Assembly: GCF_019649055.1 (NCBI RefSeq)
Contig: NW_026570221.1
Span: 1,922,001-1,986,000, forward strand
Reading direction: 5' to 3'
From: Paramacrobiotus metropolitanus
Taxonomy: Eukaryota > Tardigrada > Eutardigrada > Parachela > Macrobiotidae
Length of the DNA: 64,000 nucleotides
The position numbers were made by a program, and so were the translations under genes. The notes under the pieces were generated by a model. That model had not been told where the DNA came from. It saw only the letters and a list, made by a program, of their open reading frames with translations, and made no database searches. This document shows positions 33,701 to 51,700 of this stretch, piece by piece (within the stretch, counting starts at the first letter, position 1; every line of letters starts with the position of its first letter).

Positions 33701-36700
33701 ACAAGGTATGCCGCTACGTACCAAGGGACGATGAGGAGATCCAACTCTGAAATTATCAAGTAAAAGCTCACCTCACAGTAACAAGAGTTATCGTCAGCAG
33801 ATGTTACTGTATGTTAATAAGCACAACTCTGAAACACTACATGTACGCTGATGAATGAAACTTTAGAGTCCACGATAACTGATAGGTGCTGAACATAAAA
33901 GCGAAAATGTCATACGAATATGAAATTTCTTTCTGTTAAATTTAGCTCCTTCTCGTTCATATCAAAACGATTGGTTCGAAGTTTACTTACAGTTACGGAT
34001 GCAAAATAACTATAAAAAGACATTCTGTGCCTGGTTGACGGTTCATTTGTAAGTATTTTCGCGCAAGGTTTTCAGCCAAAACTTTTACGTTACGCTTATA
34101 CTTTATCCGCGCATATTACAGTAGTAACTGCAAAATATTGAAATGCATCATTGTACGAGTTAAGCATTCGACATACCTCGTGCAAAGTCAAAAATCGTTG
34201 GCAATGCCCAGTTGCAAACTGAAAAACAGCAGCATTATAAAATGAAAGGATCACTGCAGGAAGCAAGACGTACGAGCAACATTGCTCGTATTTGCATGCT
34301 ATGAGGGAGACTCCGTCAGGATAGTCAGGCTATGGACGCCTTCGTACTATCGGGAGTGTACGCGTGAGCCAGCACTATATCGTCAGGCAGTACTATCGTT
34401 TAGAGCCATTTTCACTGTTATACGGCATTGCGAGCCATAGCACGGCAGCGTATGTGCTTGTACGAGTTTACTCGTGCAGTGCACTACGTACAACTCGTAC
34501 ATCAGCCACTCTCACTTCAGGCATAGTACTTTGCAGGTAGCCAGCACAGACTTCACAGTCTGCACAGTCATTACGATATTCGGTGATTTCCATGCTTGGC
34601 ATTCCCACCGGTGTCATAGGATTTTATGTTGATGTTGTGATTTATATTTTTATGAGCCATAAATATTGATATTTACGTTCCCAGTGCGTTTCCCGTATCT
34701 CCGGTAGAGTCGTAGGCTCTAGGCCCCTTACGTCGTGTACGGCCTAGATCGCATGGTAGCAGATAGCGTGTCGGTTCTCGGAAGAACAGCGTGTGGAGTC
34801 CTCCCTCTGGATTCTGCGCGTTTTCGTCCCAGTCGACATTAACACCGAAGCGAGGAGCAGCACCTGGTGCGCGAAAGACTGCTAAAACCAGTCACCAGGT
34901 CCCTCAAGGAGCAGCCCAACCTCGGATTGAAGTAAGAATCCTCTAACAGCCAAACCAACTCATTTTTCTTTTCATTTCTATCACTAACCTAATTACAGCA
35001 CTTTCTTTTAATTTAATTCTTCACATTATCAGGACAATAGCGGCTATCCAGAACAACTCATATTTAGTTTGTATAAGCCAGATCGCACATCAAAACTACT
35101 TGTTGATAATTGTATAAGCCAGATCACACATCAAAACCACTTGTTGATATTAGGTCTTCAGCCAGCTCTACATTTCAGTCCTACAGTTTACATATTTATT
35201 TATTCGTCAGACCTTCATTTCATTCAGCCAGTACAATATTTTCCACTAATTTCAGTACGAATAGTGCTGTGAATTTGTGGAAAAATTAGCCATTCAACCT
35301 AGTGAGTTTCTTCGGAAATTCACTGCACATCAGCCAGCCAGACACGATTTGTTTCGTGTGCAAAAACACGTGTTCTTGCAGCCAGTAAAATCAGCGTTAT
35401 TTCAGTCCAAAATTCAGCGTTTTTCAGCCAGCGCAAATCTCTGGGTTTTTTCGAAAGGTTACAATCTTTCGGAAATTTCCGGGTATTGCGCACCGTTCAT
35501 CGCTCTTGCAGGCAGGTAAATTCATGTTCAGCATTGGAAAGATTCCAATCGCTGATAACCAAGCCGCCTTTGTATTCGGCTCGCTCGAATACAATAGCCG
35601 CTTAAAGCCATCGCACTCAGAGACACAGGAGAGAGAGGAAATTTTCAGAAGTCATTTCTGAAAAACATCCTCTTGCATCACACAGCCAGACATCCAGGCA
35701 GTACAAAGTGGCATTTTTGAGCGCTGTTGATTTCGATTGATAGCGTTCGAAATTGCAGCCATTCCAAAGGCACCTTCAAATTTAAAATTAATTCAGCCAG
35801 ATCTCACACAATTTAATCCTGATTATTACAGCATCATTTTCATAACGCCAGTAAAAATGTTCAGACGGCTGAGAGACACACTCTCACCGTTTGTGCGAGC
35901 AAGCCAGACGCCAGAAACAACCGACAACGAACCGTTGTCAAGTGAGGCAGAAATACCGGCTCAGGAACGTGTTTCACGTTCCAAAGCACAAAAACTGAAG
36001 GCAGGAGGACACGATGTCCCATACCACACGTTGGAAAGCATTAATCAGCAGCAAGCATTCGCCAGAAGCAGTAAGGTGGCACGTTCTCCGGAACGGAAGT
36101 CCACTGGACCTGCACAGCCAGAAACCACTCAGGCAGAAATCCACGCTCAGCCAGATGATGCTGACTCCATTATTGGAGGTCAAAATGATCTGCCAGAGCT
36201 TAGCGATATGTCTCAGTCAGAAGAAGAACATCAGAAGCCAGAACAAACCCCGCCAGTTCAAAACGAAAATGCACATCAGTCACCATCGTCAAATGATCCA
36301 GCAGCATATCACACACCACAGGAACAGGACCCAGACCCACAGCAGGAGGTAAACCGACTGCGTGAGTTATGGGCCAAGGCAAAAATCGAATTATTTCGTG
36401 AAAAAGGGCAGTCAAATTCGCAGGCAGCTAAAATTCAGGAACTAACTGACTTTATCAAACGCCAGGACGAAATGATTAATTTTCAGAAAACGTACATCGA
36501 AAAGAGGGATCAGCGTTTGCAGCAGCGCGACGCTGATAAAGCCAGCACAATTCAGAACAATGCCGAAATTGAGAAGGCACTCCAGGAATCGTACCTGGAA
36601 AGGCAGAAATTACAGGAGAGGGCAGAGTATGCTCATCACCAGTTGCAGAAGGAGGCACAAAAACGTATTCAGGCAGAATCACAGAAGGCAGAAACTCTTC

Positions 36701-39700
36701 AGGACGAACTCAGACACTACAGAGAGCGGTACACTCATTACAAGGAGAGGTGTGGTGAACTTGAGGCCTGTTTGATCGAGGAGCCTTCTCCCGGTCAGCC
36801 AGCCCCTCCCCCACCAACCTCCCGAAATCAGAGACACCAGTCACGTCGAGACGAATCACCGGAAGTAATGGAAATCCCTCAGGATAACACCACTCACCGG
36901 CGTCCATCTCGACGCCGTAAGGCAGAACATCGAGAACATGTCCAGTTCAGAACTACAGAGCCAGATGATGAGATCACCATCATCCCACAACCACGCCCAA
37001 CTGTGGTAACCCCACAATTGGACATCGGCAGTATAATTGGCAAAGCACTGGAAGCACAGTCCAGTGGTTTTGCTCAGTTATTACCACAAGTAGCCAGCAA
37101 AAAGACCAAGAACTGCTTCGTACCGAAGTATAAAGGCACAAAAGACACCGTCGAAGGCTTCCTCACACTATTTGAGTTGGCCAAAAAGGCAGGCGAATGG
37201 GAAGAAGAGGAAACTCTCAACCGTTTCGCCGGTGCACTTCAGGATGAGGCAGCTACATGGTTCAGTGGTATTATGGCATCTTCAACGCCAGTTACCACTT
37301 ACGCAGAAGCTAGGAAGAAACTGTTGGAGCGCTTCGGCGATCCAGACAAGGCCTTCCATGCCACACAGACACTCATGACACGCCAGTTCAACCCAGCCAA
37401 AGAAACAATCGAGCAGTACTTTCAGGCAATGTCATCATTGTCTGATCGTAGTGGTCAAACTCAGCCAGCTTTCCTCGTCTCCTGCATGCTGAAGGGACTG
37501 GAAACAGCCCCTAAGCTGCACGAGAATGTTGCACTCATGATGCCAAAAACACCAGTGGAACTTCTCCAGAGAGCCAGATATCTGGAGTCGTTGCACTTAA
37601 GCGGCAGTAGTAGCAAACCAGCCAACCCTACAAAAGCCAGCTCATCCAAAGTATCGTACGCACAGGCAATTAACCCCGAATGTCAGCCAGATAACCCCGG
37701 CGTTCGCAACGCTGGTGGTCAGCAGACCGCCGGCGGCATTGCGAATCGTCCACCTCGGAGCAGATCACAACAAAGTAACCCACAAGTCAGCGATAAACCG
37801 CGAGAAGGTGTCGATTACTGCAAGTGGTGCTGCATCGAAGGGCATACCTCCGATGTGTGCACACATGCAGGAAAGGCAAAGGCAGATAACCCCGTCTATC
37901 AGAAATATCACTGGCCAGATGGCACACGACGCTCACTGAAGGAATGGCAGGACAACAAAGCTCGTCGTGAAGCCAGAAAACAAAGCCAGAGCCCAGAAAA
38001 CCGTGCTAATAACGAACGCAGAGCTAACACAACAGATCAGAGCGACAGAAGGCAGAATAACACAGGTAATGAGCGCCGTGGTGGCAGTGGTCGGCCATCA
38101 GCCCGCCCCGCGCCATCACCGCGTCCCCGTCAGTCCAACCGTTTCAGCGAGTTATCGGATACACTATCAGACAGTGACGGTGAAGACTCCGATACAGAAT
38201 CAGCCAGAAATACAGATGCTGAAATCAGTGACAATGAGGCAGATTTAAACGATTAAGGGCAGCAGCAACCGGCTCTGCTGTCCCGCGTCCCAAAAAACCG
38301 CCGGATAAGCCAGTAATACAACAAGTGTCAGCAAATAAGCCAGTACAACGGAAAGCAGCAGCAAGTAAGCCAGCCACAAAACCAGCGACAAGTAACCCAA
38401 CTTGTTACTCGGTTACAGTGGTACCACAGCAAGTTACAGCTAAGCCAATCCAAAAACAAATCAAAACACCTAAGCCAGTAAATCAAACCAATTTAAGCCA
38501 GTTTATCTCTCAAGCTACACTTGAGATTATCCCAGAGCTAACCACAAATAAATCAGAGCAACCAGAGCAGAAAGCCAGTGTAACATTCAACGGTTTCACC
38601 GTTGAGAGTGATTGTGAATGTACCGTTGATTCAAACCCAGCAGTACATCATTGTCACATCGGTAATTGTGATGAGCCAGGAAAATCGCCGACGTTAACTC
38701 ACCCAGTTACGATCGGTACAGCCAGAGTAAACGCCATGATCGATACAGGAGCGGAAACGTCCCTCATATCTGATCAGTTATGTAGGCAGTACAATCTCAT
38801 TCAAAAGCCATTATCAAAACACATGCATATCAGGGGAATAGGAGGAGTTTGTAACTTCTCCGTGACGCATTACGCCAGTGTTCCCATAAAAATCAACGGC
38901 AACGTAGTGCTTCACAGCATGTACGTTAAACCGTTATGTGCAGATAGTGTGCATCTCCTTATAGGCCAGGACTTCTTAGCAAATGTGGTCATGGTGGCAG
39001 ACTGTGGTAAAGTTTCCCACCTCCGACCAAAACAAAAACGCGATCGCCCATATCTTGTAAATCAGTCTAACCCAGCAAAGCCAGCTGCGTTAGAAGTATA
39101 TCAGTCCAGTGCTGCTGTATCAGCCCCACTGGAAGTAAATCAGTCCAGACCGGCATTATATGCCACCCTGGAAGCAGATCTCGCTAAGAAACCCGGAGTG
39201 TCGTCTTACCCCATACCAGTGGCAACTGCGTTGCCACTGGATGCAGCTCAAAAAGGGGATAAGCGGCAAAATCCTTTGCACACTGCAGCACAACCTCTAG
39301 CCAGAAAACAAAAATCAGTTAAGCCAGTTCAAAATAAAACTAAGCCAGAAATTAAACCAGTAAAAAAGCCAAAAACCACGAAGTTGCCAGATCTATCAGC
39401 TCCTAAGCCAGATGAAAATACGATTAATCAGATAAATGCGTGGTTAGCATATCAAGTCTACATTAGGCAGATACAAAAGGCAGCATTCTACAGGCATCGA
39501 ATTTTTAAATATTATCAGACACAGATAAAAGCCAGAAAAACAATTAAAACTGGAGGCTTTAATCCCACTTCAGTCAAATGGATACTTACAAAGCAGTTAG
39601 AAGGCATTAAAAAAGAGATCTTGTACGAGTACAAACTACTCGAACAAGATCGTCGGCAGATCAACGTTAAATTCAGTTCATATCAGATGCAGAAGCCAGA

Positions 39701-42700
39701 ATTCCTTGAGATTACGACATCAGAAATCTATAAATGGCCTTATCGTGTGTGGAAATCACTCGATCCCGTCATTTATGGTTCATTTACATATCAGCCCTAC
39801 AATCAGGCCAATGCCAGTAGACCACCGATGATTATCAAAAAGCGCGTAAAATTCAGCGATGATTTGCTGCATATTCGCCTTTTTGATAAAAATAAGCCAG
39901 TTAAATCAAAGCCAATCAAAAATATCAAACCTACAAAAGGCATATTACCGCTTAAGAAGCTGTATCAAACCCCAAAGCCAGATCAACTTCCGCAAACTCA
40001 GCCAGTTACATACAGTCAGGTTCTCGAAACATTCGTACATCAGCCACAGGAGACAATAGTGTATAAGCCCATGGCGGATTATCCCGCTTTCCACTATTGT
40101 CCCTTTCAGCCAGAAAAATCTCCAGAGCAGTTTCCTGAATCATCCTCAACTCAACAGCCAGTTAATATTAAGCCAGATATTACGGAAAAAAGTCAGAACA
40201 AATCAGAACAAATCCCGTTAGGCACTGTGAATTTGAAAGAAATGTTGGAAGAATGGAAGAAGCCATACAAACTACGTTTACAGTACTTTCACGATAATTC
40301 TTCAGTAAAAAAGCCAGAAATTCTACCACAACCGGCAGTTGCTCCACAACAACCGGTCGAAGTAGAATTACAGCACAAGCCAGTCCAAATCAACTTAATT
40401 GATGAGCCAATTATCGCTACATGTGACCAGCCATGCTTACAGCCAGAAATTATCGCGCAAAAGGAAAGATCGCATAGATCGCATAGTAGTTTGTGCGATA
40501 CAGCCAGTAATACAGAGCCAGAACTACACAGTACGGAAGTGCTTAACAGCACTGATCAGCCACAACCAGATACAACCTCCAGTATTCAGCCAGAAAATCC
40601 AATGCTTAATATCGTCGTCGACGATGTTGAACAGCCAGAAACATTCAGAAGCAGAGCCATCAAAGTCTTTGCTTGTGATAATTTCACTTTACAGCCAGGT
40701 CTAAATTGGGTATCAGTTAAAACACGTGCAGATAAACCAACAACTATCGGTGATCTCTATATGTTTTCACCGAATCCGGCATTATACTCCTCAGGCAAAC
40801 TAATCCCAGTTGCGGGATTAGTACAACCACAGGCAGAAATAATGGATTTTTTCGTAATCAACTCCTCCAGGCAACGCCGTGTGCTGAAGCGAGGCACATG
40901 GGTGGGTGTTTTGGAAGATTACGAAGAAATGGAAACAATCAGTGTAGGCAGTGTAAAACTCAGTGAACGTACGCCAGAAGAACAAGCAGAAATTCGTGAA
41001 CAAATTAGCCAGATGAATATGAATCCAGACCTAACGCCAGAAGAAAAGAAACAGTTCACCGACTTATGCGAGGAATTTGCGGATATTTTCCCAACTTCTA
41101 AGCAGTTGTATGGTGTAAAGCCAGAAACAGCCTCACATATCATTGAGACCGGTGATGCAAAGCCAGTTAAAAGCCAACCCCACAGAACTTCATGGAGAGG
41201 CAGACAAATAATCGCAGAACACATTAAGGACATGGAGAAAAAAGGCATTATCAGACCCAGTAAAAGCAACTGGTCCTTCCCAGTTGTTTTAGCCATTAAG
41301 AAAAACCCTGACGGCAGTATTGGTACCAGGTTTTGCGTCAACTATATCAAGTTGAACAACCTGACCAAGAAAAATAATTATCCTTTACCAAACGCAGACG
41401 AACTGTTGGACGCTGTATCAGAAAACAAATTCTACTTCACGTTTGACTGTTCGTCTGGGTTTTGGCAGATCCCCATGCATCCCGATTCAGTTGAAAAAAC
41501 GGCATTTATAACTCAGGATGGTTTGTACGAGTTCGTGCGAATGCCTTTCGGCGTTTGCAACGGACCCGCTACTTTCCAAGCAGCCATGGATAAAACCTTA
41601 GCCAGAGTACGTCATTTAGGTATTTTCGCATACCTAGACGACATTATTGTCGCAGCCAAAACATTCGCAGAGGCACTGATGAAAGTCAGACTACTCTTTG
41701 AGTGTCTCCGGGAAACTGGATTCACTTTGAAGCCATCAAAATGTCATATTGCAAAGCCAGAACTCCACTTTTTGGGTCACATTGTGAGTGACAAAGGCAT
41801 AACTACTGATCCAGCCAAAATCACAGCCATTCAAAACTATCCTCAGCCCACAAATGAGAAAGAGATGCGCTCTTTTCTCGGGCTAGCCAATTACTACAGG
41901 AAGTTTGTTAAGGGATACGCTTCCCTTACACAAAACCTGTACAGTCTTTTGTCGAAAGACAAGGACGTAGCCAGAGACTGGAAGCCAGAACATACAGCAG
42001 AGTTTGAGACGATTAAAAAGGCACTCACAACCACTCCAGTTTTAGCCAGATTTGATCCAGCCAAACAGGCAGTTATCGAATGTGATGCATCCACGATAGG
42101 CATTGGAGCAGTCCTTCAACAGGATGGACATCCTGTTGCATACGCCAGTCGCTTACTTACAGATGCAGAGACCAGGTACGCCATTACCGAACTTGAATGT
42201 TTGGCAGTGGTGTACGCGATCTCAAAATTCAGGCATTTCATCGAATTCAGTGAATTTACAGTCAGAACAGATCACCAGGCATTAGCAAACCTCATTCGTT
42301 CAGCCAGTAACCGACAAGGCATGAATCCACGCCTGACTCGTTGGGCATTGCAGTTAGGCAGTCACCACATTAACATCGAATATAAGCTAGGGCGTTTTTG
42401 CCATAACGCAGATGCACTCAGTCGACATCCTGTTGATCCTGCAGTACCAGAGGAAGAGTGGGATGACCACTTCAGCACTCCTTTTGTACGCATGGTCTCA
42501 GTCAGTGATACCAGTGACTTTCAGGAAACCACTTCTGTCGGGATAGTACGTGTTACAAACCCCCAGAACGCCACTGATAGGAGGCAGAAAAACACGAGTA
42601 ACACTGGTATGAATAATACTAGTGCTACTGAAATAGGCAGCGAAACAGACATTGAAATCAGTACAACTACAGTATCAGAAGCCAGTCAAACCCAAAATAC

Positions 42701-45700
42701 TCAGCCCAACAAAATCGCACAGCCAGTAGCTGATGAGGACGAAGAAGGAAACTTCAACTTCCTCCGCAGCGAACAATTAAATGATCCAGCTCTAGAGAAA
42801 ATCATTCTCTATCTGGAAGATAAGCCAGAAAGCCAAGACCTTCAGACCAACTATCGCCTTTTCGAACTTCATCATGGTGTCTTATACCGTCGCCGTGAGA
42901 AAGACGATCGTCTTAACCGGCGATTCGTAGTTCCCAGGCACTGGAGAGTGGACATCATGCGCGCTTTGCATGATTCTCCAGCAGGCGGTCATTTAGGCAC
43001 TCAAAAAACTAGCCATGTAATATCAGCCAGATACTATTGGGACAATATGACCAGTGATATCCATCAGTACATAAAACAGTGTCAGAAGTGCCAGTTTCGA
43101 AAAGTTCCGCGTAAAGCATTGCCAGGAAAACTTCAGCAGGTACAAACCGGAGAGCCATTCTTCCGCATTCAGGTGGATCTTAAAGGTCCACTGAAAGTCA
43201 GTAAAAAAGGCAACAACACCATTGCAGTTGCAATTGATCAGCTCACTAAGTTTGTAATCGCCAAAGCCATACCCGACCAAAAGGCAGAATCAGTAGCAGA
43301 TTTTCTGCTGCATGACGTGATACTGCCGTATGGCGCACCTTTTATCATCAACACCGATAGAGGCAGTCATTTTCTGAATGATCTCATCAGCGCTATTACC
43401 AAACAGCTGAAAATAAAACACCATTTTGGTACGGCATACCACCCCCAAGGCAGAGGACTTGTCGAAAGACAGATGCAGTGGATAGGCGACGGTCTATCCA
43501 TGCTTGTAGGCAGAGCTAACGAAAAACGGTGGGATGAATTTCTTCCGTTTATTGTAGCGGCATACAACCGTACAGTTCAGAAAACCATCAGGCATTCACC
43601 ATTCTACATGTTGTATGCCAGGGAACAGTCACTTCCAGGTGACACCATCACTCAGACCAACCTCCCAGACGATTATGACAGCATTGACGATTATTTGGAG
43701 AAATTCAAATATCGTTTGAATGCTGCTCATGATGCAGCCAGAGCATACATCGACGAAGACTTTCTGCGAAAGGCAGAAACCTATAATCAGCACAAAAGCA
43801 AGCCAGATTTTACGATAGGCAGTCTAGTAAATCTCAGGCAGCAACAAAAGAAAGGCGAAAGTAAGGACCTTCGTTTTAAATACGATGGCCCTTTCGAAGT
43901 CGTAAAATTCCCATCAGAAAACGAAGTTGCCATTATTCGCAGAGACTATCCGTATGACTCAGACGTCGTCGCGATCGATCGTTTGAAATCATACACGCCA
44001 GAAGACCCTGATTTCAGTAAGCCAATCAAAACCAGAATAATCCTCAGCGATATCGATAACGCGAAAATATTAGGCAAAACAAAACGGGATAAAAATACGC
44101 AGCCAATCTCACCAGCTAAGCCATCAACTGGACTGTTAAAAGTCAAGTTGAAAGTACCTCAGAAAAAATCAGATGAAATTATCAGTCCAACCAGTACAGC
44201 TGCAGATACTTCTGCAGATCAGCCAGTCAGTGATACTAGTACTGATTCGGGAATTAACGCCCAAACCAGTACAAGTCCAGAAGCCACATCAACCGGTGGA
44301 GACTCGTCTCCACAACCGCCAGTTAAAATCAGAAAAAACTCAAAACGACAAGCCAAACCAAAATCAGCCAGTTCTGATACATCAGAGTCGTCATCCAGTG
44401 ACTCTGATGGATCATGGACAATTACAGCCAACAGCAAAGGCAAAGTGAAAATCAAACGGCATCGTCAGACGCCGAATGATTTATTAAGCCAGCCACTCGA
44501 TTCTGAAACTGACGCAGAGGACGCAGACCTAGTTGAAAAACTAACTCGTCCAAAGCGCCGAAAGCCACGTTTCCCACCAGCTAGTTAAAATACGAAAAGA
44601 TCGCATGACAGCAGGCAATATACTCTTTAAGCCAGTTAAAAATGTACAGATCGCATGGCAGCAAATAACATCAGACCGCATGGAAGCAGTATTTAAATCA
44701 GTGCAAAAACGAAAAAACTGCAGGCATATCATATGGCAGTAAAACGAGATTAAGGATCGTGACCGCACCCGCGTCATGACAGTAAAAAGATCGTATGGTA
44801 GCAGTAATATCAATTTATTAGCCAGTGAAAAAAGATCGCAGGTAGCAATCTGCAAATTAGCATGTCAGCCAGTAAAACAAATCAGCCCAATTATCAGAAA
44901 TTAAAACAGCCAGTTAAATTCATTTTACATGCATTTTGAAAAATACTTGCATGTAAATTAGCCAGTTGTACACAATGTAACGGACAGCACTCCATACTCA
45001 GTCAGTTAAAACAGACAGACCCCCATAATTAGGCAGTTAAAAAAGGCATTTTATTACAAAATTACTAACCGCATGCAATACCACCTTATAGCAGGCATAC
45101 CATCATTAGTAATTCATCTCAAACATCATTCTCCATTTTACAGTAATGGATCCTAACCGAGGCGGCAGTCGTCGCCGCGGTTATCCCAGAAAACAGGCAG
45201 ATCCACAAAATACTAGCCAGTCACAACAAGAGCCAGATTCTTCTGAAACGTCAGAGGAAGAACACGTCATGATTATCGGCGAAGTGGAAAGGCCAGCAAC
45301 AAGCCATTCCACTTATTCAGAATCAGAACAACTCGCTAATGTAGGACTTCAGCCAGTTCCAAAAGTTGAGTCAGCAGAACCATTGTCTATTTCTACACAA
45401 GGAAGTACGATGATGGCTGGCTTAACACAGGCAGATTTCACCCGTTTAATGCAGGAAAATCAGCAGTTGCAACAACAACTGTTGCAGATGCAAGGCAGTC
45501 AACCACCAGAACAACAGGCAGATGAACCAGACAGTAGTTCATCGCCCAGGCCAGTCAAAACTGAACAACACCTTGAGCCAGAAAACACAGGAAATGCCAG
45601 TTCAACACTACAGCCAGTGTCTAATATTCCTCTTACAGCACCTCAGTTATATCAGGCATATCTATCCAGCTCAAAGCCAGAATTTACTCCACGAGCTCCG

Positions 45701-48700
45701 ACATCGGATTTTCATCCGATTAACAGACCAAAGCCAGTGAAAACGGAACAGACACCGTTTGTCAGACAGCCAGATCTATCACGAGTTGTACGAGCCAGAG
45801 TTCCTAATGCAGATCAACTCAGAGCCAGTTCAAGCAGAGCCAATACTGGTCCCAGCAGAAACACCAGATCTCAGGACAGGCAGCACGACAGAATTTCCAC
45901 CATTTCAGAACCACACAGCACAGGCGTAGTCCCGCCACCACCGGGATTTTCACCGCCTTTGCCAGCCAGTATGACTCAGCACATTTCAAACAGTGTACAT
46001 CAGTACAGGTTCCGTAATCCAAGGAGCACAGAGCCAGATCTACCTTGCAGGCGAGGATATAGTTGGGTTACAGCCACAAAATCAGGCGACCCAGCTAGAG
46101 CAACAGGCAGAGCAGTACCTACAGGCCGACCTCCAGCTCCAGTACGACAGCCAGTCCCACCATTTCCAGGTTTTGCAACCCTGGATATGACTAGGCAGAG
46201 AGCACCTATTTATTCACCGCCAACACTACAGCGGCGCTCAGACGAAGATTCACCAGAGTATACACAGCCACAACTATTGGGATATAAAACTCCCGAGGCA
46301 TCTCCCATAAAGCCAGTACAAACATGTGTACCAGGTCAGCCAGGCAGATCTAGCGAATCAAAACGACCCAGATCAGATGAAGACAGACGAGTCAGAATCA
46401 CCGCATTAATCCCGAAAATTTTGGAAGCCATCAGATACGCCAAGGAAACTCAGAAGACACGCCCAACACTATCCGTGCTCGAGGGTATTTACCGCACTCG
46501 ACTCGGTGGTTTACAGGCTAGTCTTGCTGAATTCAGAGAAGCAGTCGACTTAGCAGTTAATACAGGCAGAATTGTACGCACCTTCAGCAGTGGAAATAAT
46601 CAGTGGAATACAGAGGCAACTTACACAACTCCGCAAGTCAGACGCAACCAGCATCAGGACAACCCACTTATTTTACCGCGAAAGTTTCGGTACGCAGTAG
46701 AGGCAGCGATAAACGAGATTCATGACCCAAATGGATCAACAAATCTGGAGATCATCCAGTACATACAGGCAGTTTTCCCACAGCCAGATATGACTCCAGC
46801 GGAAGCTATCAGAACTATACAGGCAGCACTACGTGAATTGGTCCAGCGACGGGTAGTTGAAGAATTACCCAACCCTGGCGCCGTTCAACCGCCATTTCAC
46901 CGCTATGCACTGACAAGCACTCATGCACAGAGAGTCAGCGCATTAACAGGAGAGCCAATTGAAGACATACCGGCAGTCCCACATCAGAATCCCATGCCAC
47001 ATCCCAATGACATTTTACGTGTTATTGGTCAGTTACAGGCACAACTACGACGACCTACACCAGATGCAATTTGGCAGTCCTTGTTTGAGGAACGGCCAGA
47101 TTACACTGTTGTGGCAGTCTCATACGTATTAAGGCAGATGACAATTTCACGCCATATCATACGCCAGTTTCACGGTACAAATCAGCCAGTTTACATTACG
47201 CCAGCTAACACAGAGTCACGCTTATCAGAACTACGGCAGAATAATCCAGATCCCTGGAGAGCGCTCATTACGCGAGCTATCCATGAGATCGCGGATCCCA
47301 GCGGTACAACAGTCAGTGAGGCAGTACTCTATATCAGAGCAATTTTGCCAGATATGCCATCTATGCCAGCACCACAAACGACAATGTACGAAAGGCAGCT
47401 CATGGACGATGAGGATTTCGTCTATGACATTGACGTTCATCGCGGAGTGTGTTTCCGACTGACACACCCACTCTCATCACCACCACAGGCATCTCAACCT
47501 CCAGCAAAACGGAAGTAGATCTAACAGTCTACTTCCCAGCCAAAACAACAATCAGATCAACGAATAACACAATAAGATCGCATGGTAGTCTCACAACTAC
47601 TATGTAATCATAGCCATTTTCATTTCTAATTATGACAGATCGCATGGTAGATGCAAATCTACTTTGTGATTATAGCCAGTCCTATTTCACAGTCTAGATC
47701 GCATGGTAGCTCTAAATCTACTATGTGATTTTAGCCAGTTAAAATCCTTATACAGTTACAACCGCAGATCGCATGGTAGGCGTTACAATCTACTTTGCGA
47801 TTTTTGCCAGTTAAACCATTACAGAATTACCAGATCGCATGGTAATTAAGGCAGATAAACGGTAATTTAAAAGATCGCATGGTAATTAAGGCAGATAAAA
47901 ACAACAAACTGGATCATACAGATCGCATGATAGTAATATCATGTAAACTCAGTTTGTAGGCAGTGTAATATTATTCCTTTTCAGAAAAATTTCAGTTACT
48001 ACAGCCAGTATAAAACTAACTAAATTAGTCATTAATTTAGTTCATTGTAAGCCAAATCTACGTAGTGGAAACACCACTGCGATATACGCTTGAATTAAGG
48101 CATTTCCACTTTCAGAATGGCGTTCGCCAGACTCTACGATAAAGACTGTAAGGCATGCCACTACAACACAGAGAGACGTCCTTGTATGGATCATCTCTTC
48201 ATGGATACGCCAGATCTACCCAGCCAGGTCGAAGCTCTTGTCACGGAAGTCGTAAATGGCAGCCGCGATGCTTACGACCGTGTACGCCAGTCCAAATATT
48301 GGCCCCATGTTGAAGCCAATTACAGCTTTCATCGGAAAGTTTTCAGCGCAGTTAGCCAGCACATCAAATTCACCGGCGGATGGCGAGATGCACCAGTGCC
48401 GCCCGAGCCGAAAATTCCTGACGCTCAATCCACCACTCCTTTGGGCGTTGCAGGATGTAGCCAGCCAACCCCCAGCCCAACAATGATGCATCGCGCACCA
48501 CGGGACTCACATCCTCAGCCGCGCTATGCAGATGCAGCCAAAAAGCCAGCAATTCCACAGTCAGACCGACAGCAGAGTGGCGCACGAGGCAGTTACAACC
48601 CTCGTAGTGGCCCTGTTTTTGATCAGCCAACACCCACATCTTCGGTAGGTTGTAATAGCGGCAGAACAAGTGTAATGTCAGATTTGACGATCAGTTGAAC

Positions 48701-51700
48701 TTTCCACAGGGAAAAGGCAGAAAACCGAAGATCGAGAAGCCAAAAATTATCCCACGCCCACAATCAGAAGAAGTGCAGGTCAACAAAATCATGAAGCACT
48801 TCAACCTATTTGGTCAGCCCAAGGCATATCAGTACAAAAGAGCCATTCGAACAGTCGTTACTGAATTTAACGACTTTGCCAGTGAAATCGATCTTTATGG
48901 GCAGTTGGAACAACGCGATTACAGTGTGGAAGGTCCTCATGGAGAGGAATTGGAGTATCAGTACGCAAACGGCAGGCAAAACAACCTGAAAACCTTCCTC
49001 GACTTGGATGAATTGGATAAGCCAATTTCAACCGTCGATTATGAGGCACTCTCACAACTGCAGTACCACGGAAAAATCCATTGGGAGGATTATCTCTTCC
49101 AGTGGGTCAGCGCTGAATCCAACCCAGCGTTATTCCTGGTCGCATGTAAGGCAGCCATCCATTGTTTCCAGACACTCCAGTACGCCAAGACTCTTGAGGA
49201 AGTTCGTTGGAACATCCCGAAATCACGCCAGTACAACTGCAGATTGTTTGCACGTATGTTGGCAGCCCTACTTGGTCATTACAACAGCCATTCCTACTTG
49301 TATGACCGTAAATCGGAAGGACGCCTTCAGAACAACTGCAAAGCTATCGGAAGACCACACTTGCCAGAACAACAGAAGGAGATTTACGAACGAGCCTTAG
49401 CCAGACCTCCTCCTAAAGAAAAGCCAAAAATCCTCACCTACGTCCAGGATCCCGTCGATATGGTTACTGACCATATCGATCGCCTGAATACCCGTAGTGA
49501 GAAGAAGCGCAAGGCAGCTGAACTAACCTCCAGTCAGAACTCCAATGAACGCAGCGTTGCAGCATCACCAACTACGCCAGCACAACCAGCACTCAAGAAG
49601 CCAACAGGCGAAAATGAATCAGCCCCATCAGAGGAGATGAAAACTCCACAGCAGGCAGACCTCAGTGATGCTTTGAACGCATTGAAAGGAGCATCCTTGA
49701 ACGACGACAAGGATGTGGATACTGAAATGCCAGACAAAAACACGGAGAAATTGGAGAAACAGCCAGAACAACCAGCTGATGAATCAGCTAAACCAGCAGA
49801 TAACGCACTTGACGGCAGAACTATCGAATTACATGCCAATCAGGATGTGGATGACATTCCTGGTGCAAATTGAGGGGTTTGCGTCGGAATACGCCATGTT
49901 CTAAGCCAGATCTACATCAGCCACACCTACTTATCATTCTTACACTCCATGAACAGATACGGTTCATGTGAGTTTGGATTTTGGAATAACTCCTTGGGCA
50001 GATACGGTCCTTGTGAGTTTGTAGTTGGAATAACCCGTTGGATCGGACGGATTGTAACCCGCCAGCGGAATTCCGGTATTTTTTTTTGTTTTTCTCTAAC
50101 AGACCAAATTCCTGTTTTTGTGATAACATTAAATTGCATCTCGATGGATTTTTATTTTGGTAATTTTAATAATAAGGCAATAAGCCAAATTTTTATCGCC
50201 CTTAAGGCCATGTTGTATTTTTGTGTTCTTATTGTAAGGCACAGGAAAGGCATTCAATTCTCATAAACTAACCATACAAAATCATTTGTGTAAGGCAATC
50301 GTACTTCAATCAGTCCTATCGTTTAACCAGTCTTTACCGTTTCGCCATGGTAAATTCAGAGCCAAAAACTACTCCTAAACAGGCAAACCAGAGGCAAGAT
50401 ACGCGCTCAATACTCAAGTGGTTGGTGAACGGTCGAGAAGTGGTTGAGCTTGAGAATCAACGTGAACTCGGTAACACTGGTTTGCGAGTTGCGAGTGTTG
50501 CGAGGAAACGTGAGCGACTTCTGGTGTCAGACAGTCCTACAGGCAGTGTGTTGATTTCGTTATGGCACAAACTGCACTGAGCAGCGCTATGGCGGAATAG
50601 CATACAATCAACTTTCAGACCTACTCAGGACACCACGGGGAAGCAACATCGGTATCTCGTACTCTTGCGTTTCTCGTATTACCAGTGCAATGCCGGGAGA
50701 TCTGCGGGCCTCGCGAGACCTCGGCACCCCACCCAGTGGCATGAGGGAGACTCCGTCAGGATAGTCAGGCTATGGACGCCTTCGTACTATCGGGAGTGTA
50801 CGCGTGAGCCAGCACTATATCGTCAGGCAGTACTATCGTTTAGAGCCATTTTCACTGTTATACGGCATTGCGAGCCATAGCACGGCAGCGTATGTGCTTG
50901 TACGAGTTTACTCGTGCAGTGCACTACGTACAACTCGTACATCAGCCACTCTCACTTCAGGCATAGTACTTTGCAGGTAGCCAGCACAGACTTCACAGTC
51001 TGCACAGTCATTACGATATTCGGTGATTTCCATGCTTGGCATTCCCACCGGTGTCATAGGATTTTATGTTGATGTTGTGATTTATATTTTTATGAGCCAT
51101 AAATATTGATATTTACGTTCCCAGTGCGTTTCCCGTATTTCCGGTAGAGTCGTAGGCTCTAGGCCCCTTACGTCGTGTACGGCCTAGATCGCAGCTAGTA
51201 CAGGTATTTCTCCAGTTTCTTTTCAGTTAATTTTTTGTTTTGAATTCTGAGAAAAAAGGAGAAGTACCAAGCAGTATCAGATTAGAGTATACAGAGTAGT
51301 AAAGTCTTGATAATACACATAAAATATTTCACCCGACACTGCCATTTCCCAGATCAGAAGCCGACAACACGCACGATCCATACATCATTTACAATGTTTA
51401 TTGATTATCTCATACTTTAATTGAGACACCCTTCATTTAAAAGGAGGCAAAAAACCTGATTTGTTCGAATAACACTTGAATAATTTATCAAGATCAGAAT
51501 AATTTCTGGCAGATATGCCGTAAGCGGTGTGATAGGCGTGCAGCGGTCATAGTCAAACGAATGGCACACGCACTGTGACGCTCACACTTGTCGGGAGTAC
51601 AGAATCTTCCATCGCACCGATTTAAATTACTGGAAGATGATCTACGAACTGCGCCGGGTATTTAATCATTTAGCACAATTGTGTGTAATCACGTAGACAC

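What the first reader, a model, noticed from the sequence alone, without database searches (positions are those of the whole stretch)
44598..47960. Arrays that copy the LTR/primer-site junction, several as G-U rich hairpins
The 5' LTR ends TAGATCGCA and the primer site starts TGGTAGC. The composite AGATCGCA-TGGTAG recurs at least twelve times in the two untranslated gaps of the same element (5 or more in gap I, 7 in gap II). Related AGATCGCA copies also occur in the leader (about 35079) and in pol (about 40468). In gap II four copies each face a CTACTATGTGATT-type arm after an 8-9 nt loop, giving 12-14 bp stems that depend on G-U pairs, with one G-U to G-C change. G-U dependence and single orientation point to an RNA function. 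Ideas (inference): extra tRNA-iMet annealing or decoy sites, packaging signals, or control of splicing of downstream ORFs. I know of no retroelement described with internal arrays of its own U5-PBS junction.
Basis: partly seen in the sequence, partly recalled or inferred. Interest (0 to 1): 0.92.

Follow-up and report, generated by a model that had tools for sequence, protein, structure and literature searches.

The report
Retroelement repeating its own primer-site junction
A mobile element in this genome carries about a dozen extra copies of the short sequence where its own copying into DNA begins, a related element carries copies of its own differing version, and four of the copies fold as RNA hairpins, so they look like working RNA signals of unknown use.

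Summary
The window carries a Ty3/gypsy-type LTR element (34302-51193). Its U5-PBS junction AGATCGCA|TGGTAG recurs 12 times inside it with at most 2 mismatches (1 in pol, 4 in gap I, 7 in gap II); simulations average 0.26, maximum 3 in 500. The 24 exact matches in the 169.8 Mb assembly are all in sense, in five copies of this element. In gap II four copies form stems with 12-14 of 14 positions paired, and their 5' arms do not vary among copies. New: a sister subfamily with another junction (ACATTGCA|TGGTAG) carries internal copies of its own version; no copy in either subfamily has the other's letters at both distinguishing positions. The sense RNA is more structured than host flanks and full of GCCAG/GGCAG motifs lying between hairpins. 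Best reading (inference): extra recognition sites for the element's Gag/RT machinery on unspliced RNA. tRNA decoys fit poorly. Against: gap I copies are unfolded, sister copies have less sharp limits, and relatives C89 and C117 showed no copy with 2 or fewer mismatches in the parts read. Function is unproven.

The parts
34302..34753 (+). 5' LTR (TGAGGG...AGATCGCA), TSD GCTA outside
   Evidence: 1 mismatch in 452 to the 3' LTR
34746..34759 (+). the U5-PBS junction AGATCGCA|TGGTAG; the PBS matches host tRNA-Met(CAT) genes over 10 or 11 nt
35857..38256 (+). gag (Retrotrans_gag; one CCHC-type knuckle read by eye)
38238..44588 (+). pol (protease, RT, RNase H, integrase: Ty3/gypsy order)
40476..40507 (+). 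pol copy AGATCGCATAGTAG, short hairpin (z -2.3), then ACAGCCAG; between protease and RT
44589..45145 (+). gap I with unfolded junction copies at 44598, 44648, 44673, 44788 and 44833 (one base fewer)
45146..47518 (+). ORF3; weak, below-cutoff winged-helix/linker-histone matches; no relative at E <= 0.001 among the 8000 best candidates scored
47575..47610 (+). gap II hairpin 1
47637..47672 (+). gap II hairpin 2
47696..47731 (+). gap II hairpin 3 (14 of 14 positions paired, 3 G-U)
47766..47803 (+). gap II hairpin 4
47832..47933 (+). three further junction copies at 47832, 47872 and 47920; the last can pair with TATCATGT, not beyond chance (z -0.6)
48117..49873 (+). ORF4 (two overlapping frames in this copy; one frame in two other copies)
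50742..51193 (+). 3' LTR; no purine tract read directly before it (CACCCAGTGGCA)
34302..51193 (+). element-wide GCCAG/GGCAG motifs: 236 sense, 5 antisense, preferentially between local hairpins

Best explanation
The arrays are cis-acting RNA signals: extra copies of the site where the element's own replication machinery engages its RNA at the U5-PBS junction. They most likely act as several binding sites for Gag/nucleocapsid, or for the RT-integrase complex, on the unspliced RNA, so that this RNA is gathered, folded and packaged. Shown: the copies and their number against chance, 14-nt limits in the window element, sense orientation, invariance of the gap II 5' arms, match to the subfamily's own junction, hairpins in gap II, and a structured RNA with GSCAG linkers between hairpins. 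Inferred: that a protein binds them, that the protein is Gag or RT, and that packaging is the outcome. Gap I and gap II end in good 3' splice-site sequences directly before ORF3 and ORF4, so the arrays would be removed from spliced mRNAs and mark unspliced RNA; splicing itself is inferred from sequence only.
For: Copy number against chance. Limits in the window element: 12/12 and 10/12 matches at positions 1 and 14, 2/12 and 5/12 just outside. Own-junction tracking: main internal copies G2,C5 in 46 of 50, A,C in 2, T,C in 2; sister C2,T5 in 11 of 17, C2,C5 in 5 of 17 (the pol copy of five elements), A2,T5 in 1 of 17. Of 10 exact ACATTGCATGGTAG in the assembly 9 lie in sister elements. Gap II 5' arm columns 0 of 56 variable, p 3e-5 against loops plus spacers. 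Sense RNA structure: mean z pol -1.35, gap II -2.67, against -0.04 and -0.25 in host flanks; one sister element gives -1.21 and -1.37 in leader-gag and pol. GSCAG between hairpins, z 6.0, 0 of 2000 rotations. Acceptor-like sequences directly before ORF3 and ORF4. Precedent: in MMTV the PBS is itself a Gag-binding packaging signal at the sequence level (PMC8096270, abstract and one section read).
Against: Gap I copies are unfolded while gap II copies are paired, so one protein would have to accept both forms. The real U5-PBS does not fold like the gap II units. In the sister the limits are less sharp (11/17 matches just before position 1, 15/17 at position 15), and its copies fold weakly or not beyond chance (z -1.4, +0.6, 0.0 and +1.0). 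C89, a relative at 93% RT identity, shows no internal copy with <=3 mismatches to its own junction in the two pieces read, the pol position included; its pol breaks off before the post-pol region. C117 shows no copy with <=2 mismatches in 2 kb, only 14-mers with 3 mismatches to a junction. A piece of another retroelement also folds somewhat better than shuffles (z -0.69), so structure alone is not special to this family. In yeast Ty3, deleting the bipartite PBS did not prevent packaging (PMC4974528, passages read). There are no RNA, protein-binding or expression data.
Confidence: 0.38

Rival explanations
1. Strand-transfer addresses. After plus-strand strong-stop DNA (ending in U5-PBS) is made, it pairs with minus-strand copies of the internal junctions and yields shorter cDNAs that join the LTR to ORF3 or ORF4, much as leader and body signals do in coronavirus transcription (recalled analogy).
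For: Identity to the element's own junction is what such annealing needs. Folded as DNA, the minus strand is weaker than the plus strand in 3 of 4 gap II units (-3.7/-6.8, -3.5/-6.0, -6.6/-8.0), though not in unit 1 (-5.1/-4.3), which would leave most sites more open. Two gaps in the C141 gap II alignment are bounded by junction copies.
Against: The 5 gap II matches in the assembly are all preceded by ORF3 sequence, not by an LTR; the 3' flanks of the 26 LTR/leader matches were not read one by one. ORF3 and ORF4 already have splice-acceptor-like starts. Only 5 of 12 copies keep TGGTAG whole.
Confidence: 0.13
2. Control of splicing or translation of ORF3 and ORF4 by the arrays that precede them, for example by pairing between leader and gap or by slowing acceptor use.
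For: Arrays lie about 180-545 nt upstream of acceptor-like sequences before ORF3 and ORF4.
Against: The five sister elements have no ORF3/ORF4 match in the pieces searched but keep copies after pol. A copy lies inside pol. Gap I copies lack complementary arms (7-10 of 14 positions at best, random mean 8.0).
Confidence: 0.14
3. Extra or decoy annealing sites for the initiator tRNA primer.
For: Units contain part of the PBS, and one gap I copy keeps 9 nt of it; host tRNA-Met(CAT) genes end TCTGCTA.
Against: Only 5 of 12 copies keep TGGTAG whole. In the gap II hairpins it is paired in the stem. The U5 half tracks the subfamily but is not needed for tRNA pairing.
Confidence: 0.1
4. DNA-level binding sites (integrase at the U5 end, or the ORF3 winged-helix-like protein), with the RNA hairpins incidental.
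For: ORF3 has weak, below-cutoff winged-helix matches; U5 ends are integrase sites (general knowledge).
Against: Sense orientation only, stems that use G-U pairs, and stems far weaker as DNA (-4.3 to -8.0 against -14.5 to -17.4 kcal/mol as RNA).
Confidence: 0.1
5. By-product of reverse transcription: junction fragments inserted by template jumps and multiplied by recombination, without function.
For: C141 gaps bounded by junction copies and a 17-nt extra stretch with a junction-like copy in the sister C63 show that units come and go. Continual birth from the junction would also make copies track it. Sister limits are not sharp.
Against: Sharp 14-nt limits in the window element; no variation in the gap II 5' arms; pairing arms kept.
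Confidence: 0.15

Closest known systems
Sirevirus multiple PPT copies and repeated boxes (PMC2829016, abstract and four sections read)
   Same: An LTR element keeps several extra copies of a replication-priming sequence (on average four PPTs per linker) in the untranslated linker; repeated boxes cluster upstream of ENV; PBS only 9 nt.
   Different: There it is the plus-strand primer (PPT) or palindromic boxes; here it is the U5-PBS junction, partly as hairpins. Sireviruses are Ty1/copia; this is Ty3/gypsy.
MMTV PBS as Gag packaging signal (PMC8096270, abstract and one section read)
   Same: The PBS acts as a Gag-binding packaging signal by its sequence.
   Different: One site, at the PBS itself; no internal copies are mentioned in what I read.
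Ty3/Ty1 bipartite PBS and RNA cyclization (PMC4974528, passages read)
   Same: tRNA-iMet priming and distant RNA parts that serve initiation.
   Different: No second exact tRNA-complementary stretch of 10-12 nt was found here (one tRNA sequence); the copies repeat U5 as well as PBS.
Dispersed packaging signals of RNA viruses (PMC6281560, search listing with the start of the abstract only)
   Same: Many short signals spread over a genome RNA.
   Different: Here a short linker motif (GSCAG) lies between stems and one class of units copies the junction; binding is untested.

Membership tests
Ty3/gypsy LTR retrotransposon (Metaviridae) | Two LTRs TG...CA with target duplication | tested here: met
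   452 nt LTRs, TSD GCTA
Ty3/gypsy LTR retrotransposon (Metaviridae) | gag, then pol in the order protease, RT, RNase H, integrase | tested here: met
Ty3/gypsy LTR retrotransposon (Metaviridae) | PBS matching a host tRNA | tested here: met
   10 or 11 nt to tRNA-Met(CAT) genes plus CCA
Ty3/gypsy LTR retrotransposon (Metaviridae) | Polypurine tract directly before the 3' LTR (usual, not strictly defining) | tested here: inconclusive
   read by eye only: CACCCAGTGGCA precedes the LTR in this element and two sisters; no purine tract there, other sites not searched
Sirevirus (multiple priming-site copies) | Ty1/copia pol order with integrase before RT | tested here: not met
Ty3-type bipartite PBS | Second tRNA-complementary segment near the 3' end | tested here: inconclusive
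   no exact stretch of 10-12 nt other than the PBS, one tRNA sequence tried; shorter segments not excluded
Retroviral packaging signal at the PBS (MMTV type) | Gag binds the site and packaging depends on it | not testable with these tools
   no binding or expression data
Conserved RNA hairpin set | Pairing kept while sequence changes | tested here: inconclusive
   5 of 6 variable 3'-arm columns keep pairing, but the 5' arm does not vary, so no two-sided change exists

The most novel reading that the evidence does not exclude
A retroelement that carries its replication-start junction as a repeated internal code. Copies placed between protease and RT and after pol keep step with the element's own U5-PBS because the replication machinery reads them, either as multiple docking sites in a genome RNA built as a chain of hairpins joined by GSCAG linkers, or as internal landing sites for strand transfer that would produce subgenomic cDNAs.
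Probability: 0.3. Interest if true: 0.88.

Novelty: new variant of a known kind. Interest (0 to 1): 0.64.

Why it matters
If the copies are read by Gag or RT, this element is a natural test of what part of the U5-PBS region is recognised, with the answer written as a roughly 14-nt unit that differs in step in two subfamilies. It would also show a retroelement whose genome RNA is patterned with a repeated linker motif between stems, a case for dispersed packaging signals in a retroelement. If the copies act in strand transfer, it would be a retroelement counterpart to discontinuous transcription.

Tried and rejected
ORF3 (8000 best candidates scored) and a host-gene fragment found no relatives at E <= 0.001; the integrase region found 30 distant ones (best 40% identity over 56%). 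The RT found no confirmed relative in viral contigs. Rfam at gathering thresholds found nothing in the window. A first tRNA pattern, written from recall, found nothing; a looser one found three tRNA-Met(CAT) genes. A longer PBS pattern found 7 places that were not followed. ORF3 had three matches at E 0.6 (cysteine synthase, not believed) and ORF4b none among solved structures. A more distant family (RT 71%, C16:716597) has 3 GSCAG in 601 bases about 2 kb beyond its RT match and no TGGTAG, TGGCAG or GCATGG there; its junction is unknown, so this is weak. C127 has one exact ACATTGCATGGTAG with unlike flanks, taken as chance and not followed. With one mismatch allowed the sister 14-mer has 57 matches against 42 for the reversed control, so only exact or in-element matches carry weight. 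A literature search for GCCAG with retrotransposon found two unrelated papers.

Controls that weaken the GSCAG result: TACAG also lies between hairpins (z 3.5) and GCCA[ACT] slightly (z 2.0), while AACAG, TTCAG, GACAG, [ACT]CCAG, GGCA[ACT], CAGCA, GTTGA and host GSCAG do not (z 1.3 or less). Taken alone, gap I, ORF4 and gap III (z 0.9, 0.7, -0.4) show no effect, and C89 and C117 only weakly (z 2.4, 1.7).

Rows dropped before counts: only columns with letters in at least 4 of 5 copies were counted; C141 has three gap II units, so there are 19 hairpins rather than 20. The gap II units were first found by exact motif match, so their invariance is partly by choice, although each unit present at those places was exact. 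In one search the 12 copies with <=2 mismatches were used, so high matches inside the 14 nt are partly by choice; the limits outside are not. C76 has one LTR match, and L049 showed no ORF match. On checking I lowered the best explanation from 0.40 to 0.38 and raised the by-product rival from 0.13 to 0.15, because the sister limits are less sharp than I first wrote.
Full report
WHAT IS THERE. The window lies in a 169.8 Mb assembly of 533 contigs, a eukaryote by its size and elements (inference). At 34302-51193 stands an LTR element of 16.9 kb: LTRs of 452 nt with 1 mismatch, TSD GCTA, gag, pol in Ty3/gypsy order, then ORF3, ORF4 (two overlapping frames here) and a small ORF5 (ORF5 read). The 5' LTR ends AGATCGCA and TGGTAGCAGA follows at once. 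Three host tRNA-Met(CAT) genes end TCTGCTA; with CCA added, the two gene types match the PBS over 10 and 11 nt. Their first base and T-loop look like an initiator (recalled signature).

THE ARRAYS ARE REAL. Twelve internal copies of the 14-mer have <=2 mismatches: one in pol, four in gap I, seven in gap II. Fourth-order Markov simulations give 0.26 on average and 3 at most in 500. Of 16,427 14-mer positions in the element, 14 have 12 or more near-copies, and they belong to two kinds: the junction and an AGCCAG-type motif. The 24 exact matches in the assembly are all in sense and fall in five copies of the element on C1, C13, C16, C64 and C141 (5, 6, 5, 5 and 3). In the window element, similarity to the junction is 12/12 at position 1 but 2/12 just before it, and 10/12 at position 14 but 5/12 just after. 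In the sister copies the limits are softer: 11/17 just before, 15/17 at position 15, 1/17 at position 16. AGATCGCA is whole in 10 of the 12 copies, TGGTAG in 5; one gap I copy keeps 9 nt of PBS and one gap II copy 7.

THEY FOLLOW THE ELEMENT'S OWN JUNCTION. Searching LTR and leader gave 26 matches, among them a sister subfamily on C22, C63, C19, C25 and C291 with LTRs about 80% alike. In the pieces searched it has gag and pol but no ORF3 or ORF4 match. Its junction reads ACATTGCA|TGGTAG. I scanned internal regions with positions 2 and 5 left open (<=2 mismatches in the other 12). Main: 50 copies, of which 46 are G,C, 2 A,C and 2 T,C. Sister: 17 copies, of which 11 are C,T, 5 C,C (the pol copy in each of five elements) and 1 A,T. 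No copy shows the other subfamily's pair. Antisense hits were 8 and 0; the window's two are hairpin arms. The sister's independent sites number about five, so the sample is small; position 2 agrees with the own junction in 16 of 17 copies and position 5 in 12 of 17.

HAIRPINS. The four gap II units of the window fold with z -3.4 to -5.1, 0 of 200 shuffles folding as well for each. Across five copies, 19 of 19 units present pair at 12-14 of 14 positions with 1-3 G-U; 0.3% of random element windows reach 12. 5' arm columns vary in 0 of 56 cases, 3' arm columns in 6 of 56, loops in 5 of 34 and spacers in 69 of 354. Five of the six arm columns keep a pair in every copy. As DNA the stems are weak, and the minus strand is weaker still in 3 of 4 units, not in unit 1. 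The pol copy of the window can form a short stem (z -2.3, 3 of 200 shuffles as good); sister units give z -1.4 (C22), +0.6 and 0.0 (C63), and +1.0 (C22 pol copy). Gap I copies do not fold. So the constant is the sequence, and the strong stem is an addition in gap II.

THE WIDER SETTING. The element has 236 GCCAG/GGCAG on the sense strand and 5 on the other; the rest of the window has 63 and 78. They occur in coding and non-coding parts and in all three codon phases, one phase being favoured in gag, pol and ORF3. They tend to sit after closing arms and before opening arms of local stems: z 6.0 for the element, 4.6 in gag plus pol, 3.6, 2.5 and 3.8 in sister pieces, 2.4 in C89, 1.7 in C117, -1.0 in host flank; taken alone, gap I, ORF4 and gap III show none. 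TACAG also scores (z 3.5), so the linker may be broader than GSCAG. Sense RNA against dinucleotide shuffles has mean z -1.30 (LTR and leader), -1.10 gag, -1.35 pol, -1.06 ORF3, -2.67 gap II and -0.70 ORF4, but -0.20 gap I and 0.03 gap III; host flanks give -0.04 and -0.25. Antisense gives -0.51, -1.02, -0.87, -0.52, -1.48, -0.55, -0.25 and -0.33 in the same order. A sister element gives -1.21 and -1.37 in leader-gag and pol against -0.86 and -0.51 in antisense; its post-pol region shows no sense excess, and a piece holding another retroelement gives -0.69 and -0.50. The arrays are thus part of an RNA that appears selected for local structure, though structure as such is not confined to this family.

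HOW IT MAY WORK. Since copies keep step with the element's own junction, whatever reads them also reads, or must match, the junction: a protein of the element, or annealing of nucleic acids. Sense orientation and G-U stems point to RNA. A packaging or docking role fits best: in MMTV the PBS itself binds Gag and drives packaging by its sequence (PMC8096270, abstract and one section). Before ORF3 and ORF4 stand TTTTACAG|TAATGG and TTTCAG|AATGG, and a donor-like GTAAGA at 34932, so the gaps could be introns of ORF3/ORF4 mRNAs and the arrays a mark of unspliced RNA. This step is inference. Strand transfer to internal copies is the bolder alternative: gaps in C141 bounded by junction copies suggest that units recombine, but all 5 gap II matches follow ORF3 sequence rather than an LTR. 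A tRNA decoy is unlikely, because most copies do not keep TGGTAG whole and the gap II hairpins hold it in the stem.

AGAINST. C89 (RT 93% alike) has the junction GCATTGCA|TGGTAG and no internal copy in the two pieces read at <=3 mismatches; its pol homology stops at residue 812 of 1195 of the RT-to-end part and a pol only 45% alike follows, so its post-pol region is not there to read. C117 (94%) has ORF3 (39-47% alike) and no copy with <=2 mismatches in 2 kb; the nearest 14-mers have 3 mismatches to the C89 or the sister junction. Its junction and most of its gap I were not read. Five main copies and five sisters descend from few ancestors, so counts are not independent.

KNOWN OR NEW. The closest precedent is the Sirevirus genus, with on average four identical PPTs per linker and boxes before ENV (PMC2829016, abstract and sections 6, 9, 12, 17). 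I found no report of internal U5-PBS arrays in searches, which cover only the open library and narrow terms. I rate it a new variant of a known kind: repeated cis-acting replication signals in an LTR element.

Noticed in passing
34302-51193: GCCAG/GGCAG occur 236 times in sense and 5 in antisense, in all codon phases and preferentially between local stems; consensus roughly AG[CG]CAG[TA]. Possibly the larger finding.
   Followed up: partly
45146-47518: ORF3 is long, with weak below-cutoff linker-histone/SAMD1 winged-helix matches and what look by eye like repeated domains; C117 carries a 39-47% relative.
   Followed up: partly
50700-50742: No purine tract read before the 3' LTR in this element or in two sisters; the sequence there is kept instead. 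How plus-strand synthesis starts is unclear.
   Followed up: no
49874-50741: Region before the 3' LTR looks well kept (by eye) in two sister elements although an ORF5 match was found in only one of five sisters, hinting at a non-coding role.
   Followed up: no
L065, L066 (C89): A relative of the element breaks off within pol and a different pol, 45% alike, follows: probably another retroelement inserted there.
   Followed up: partly
35060-35150: Leader holds a tandem pair of about 50 nt around GCCAGATC[GA]CACATCAAAAC (read).
   Followed up: no
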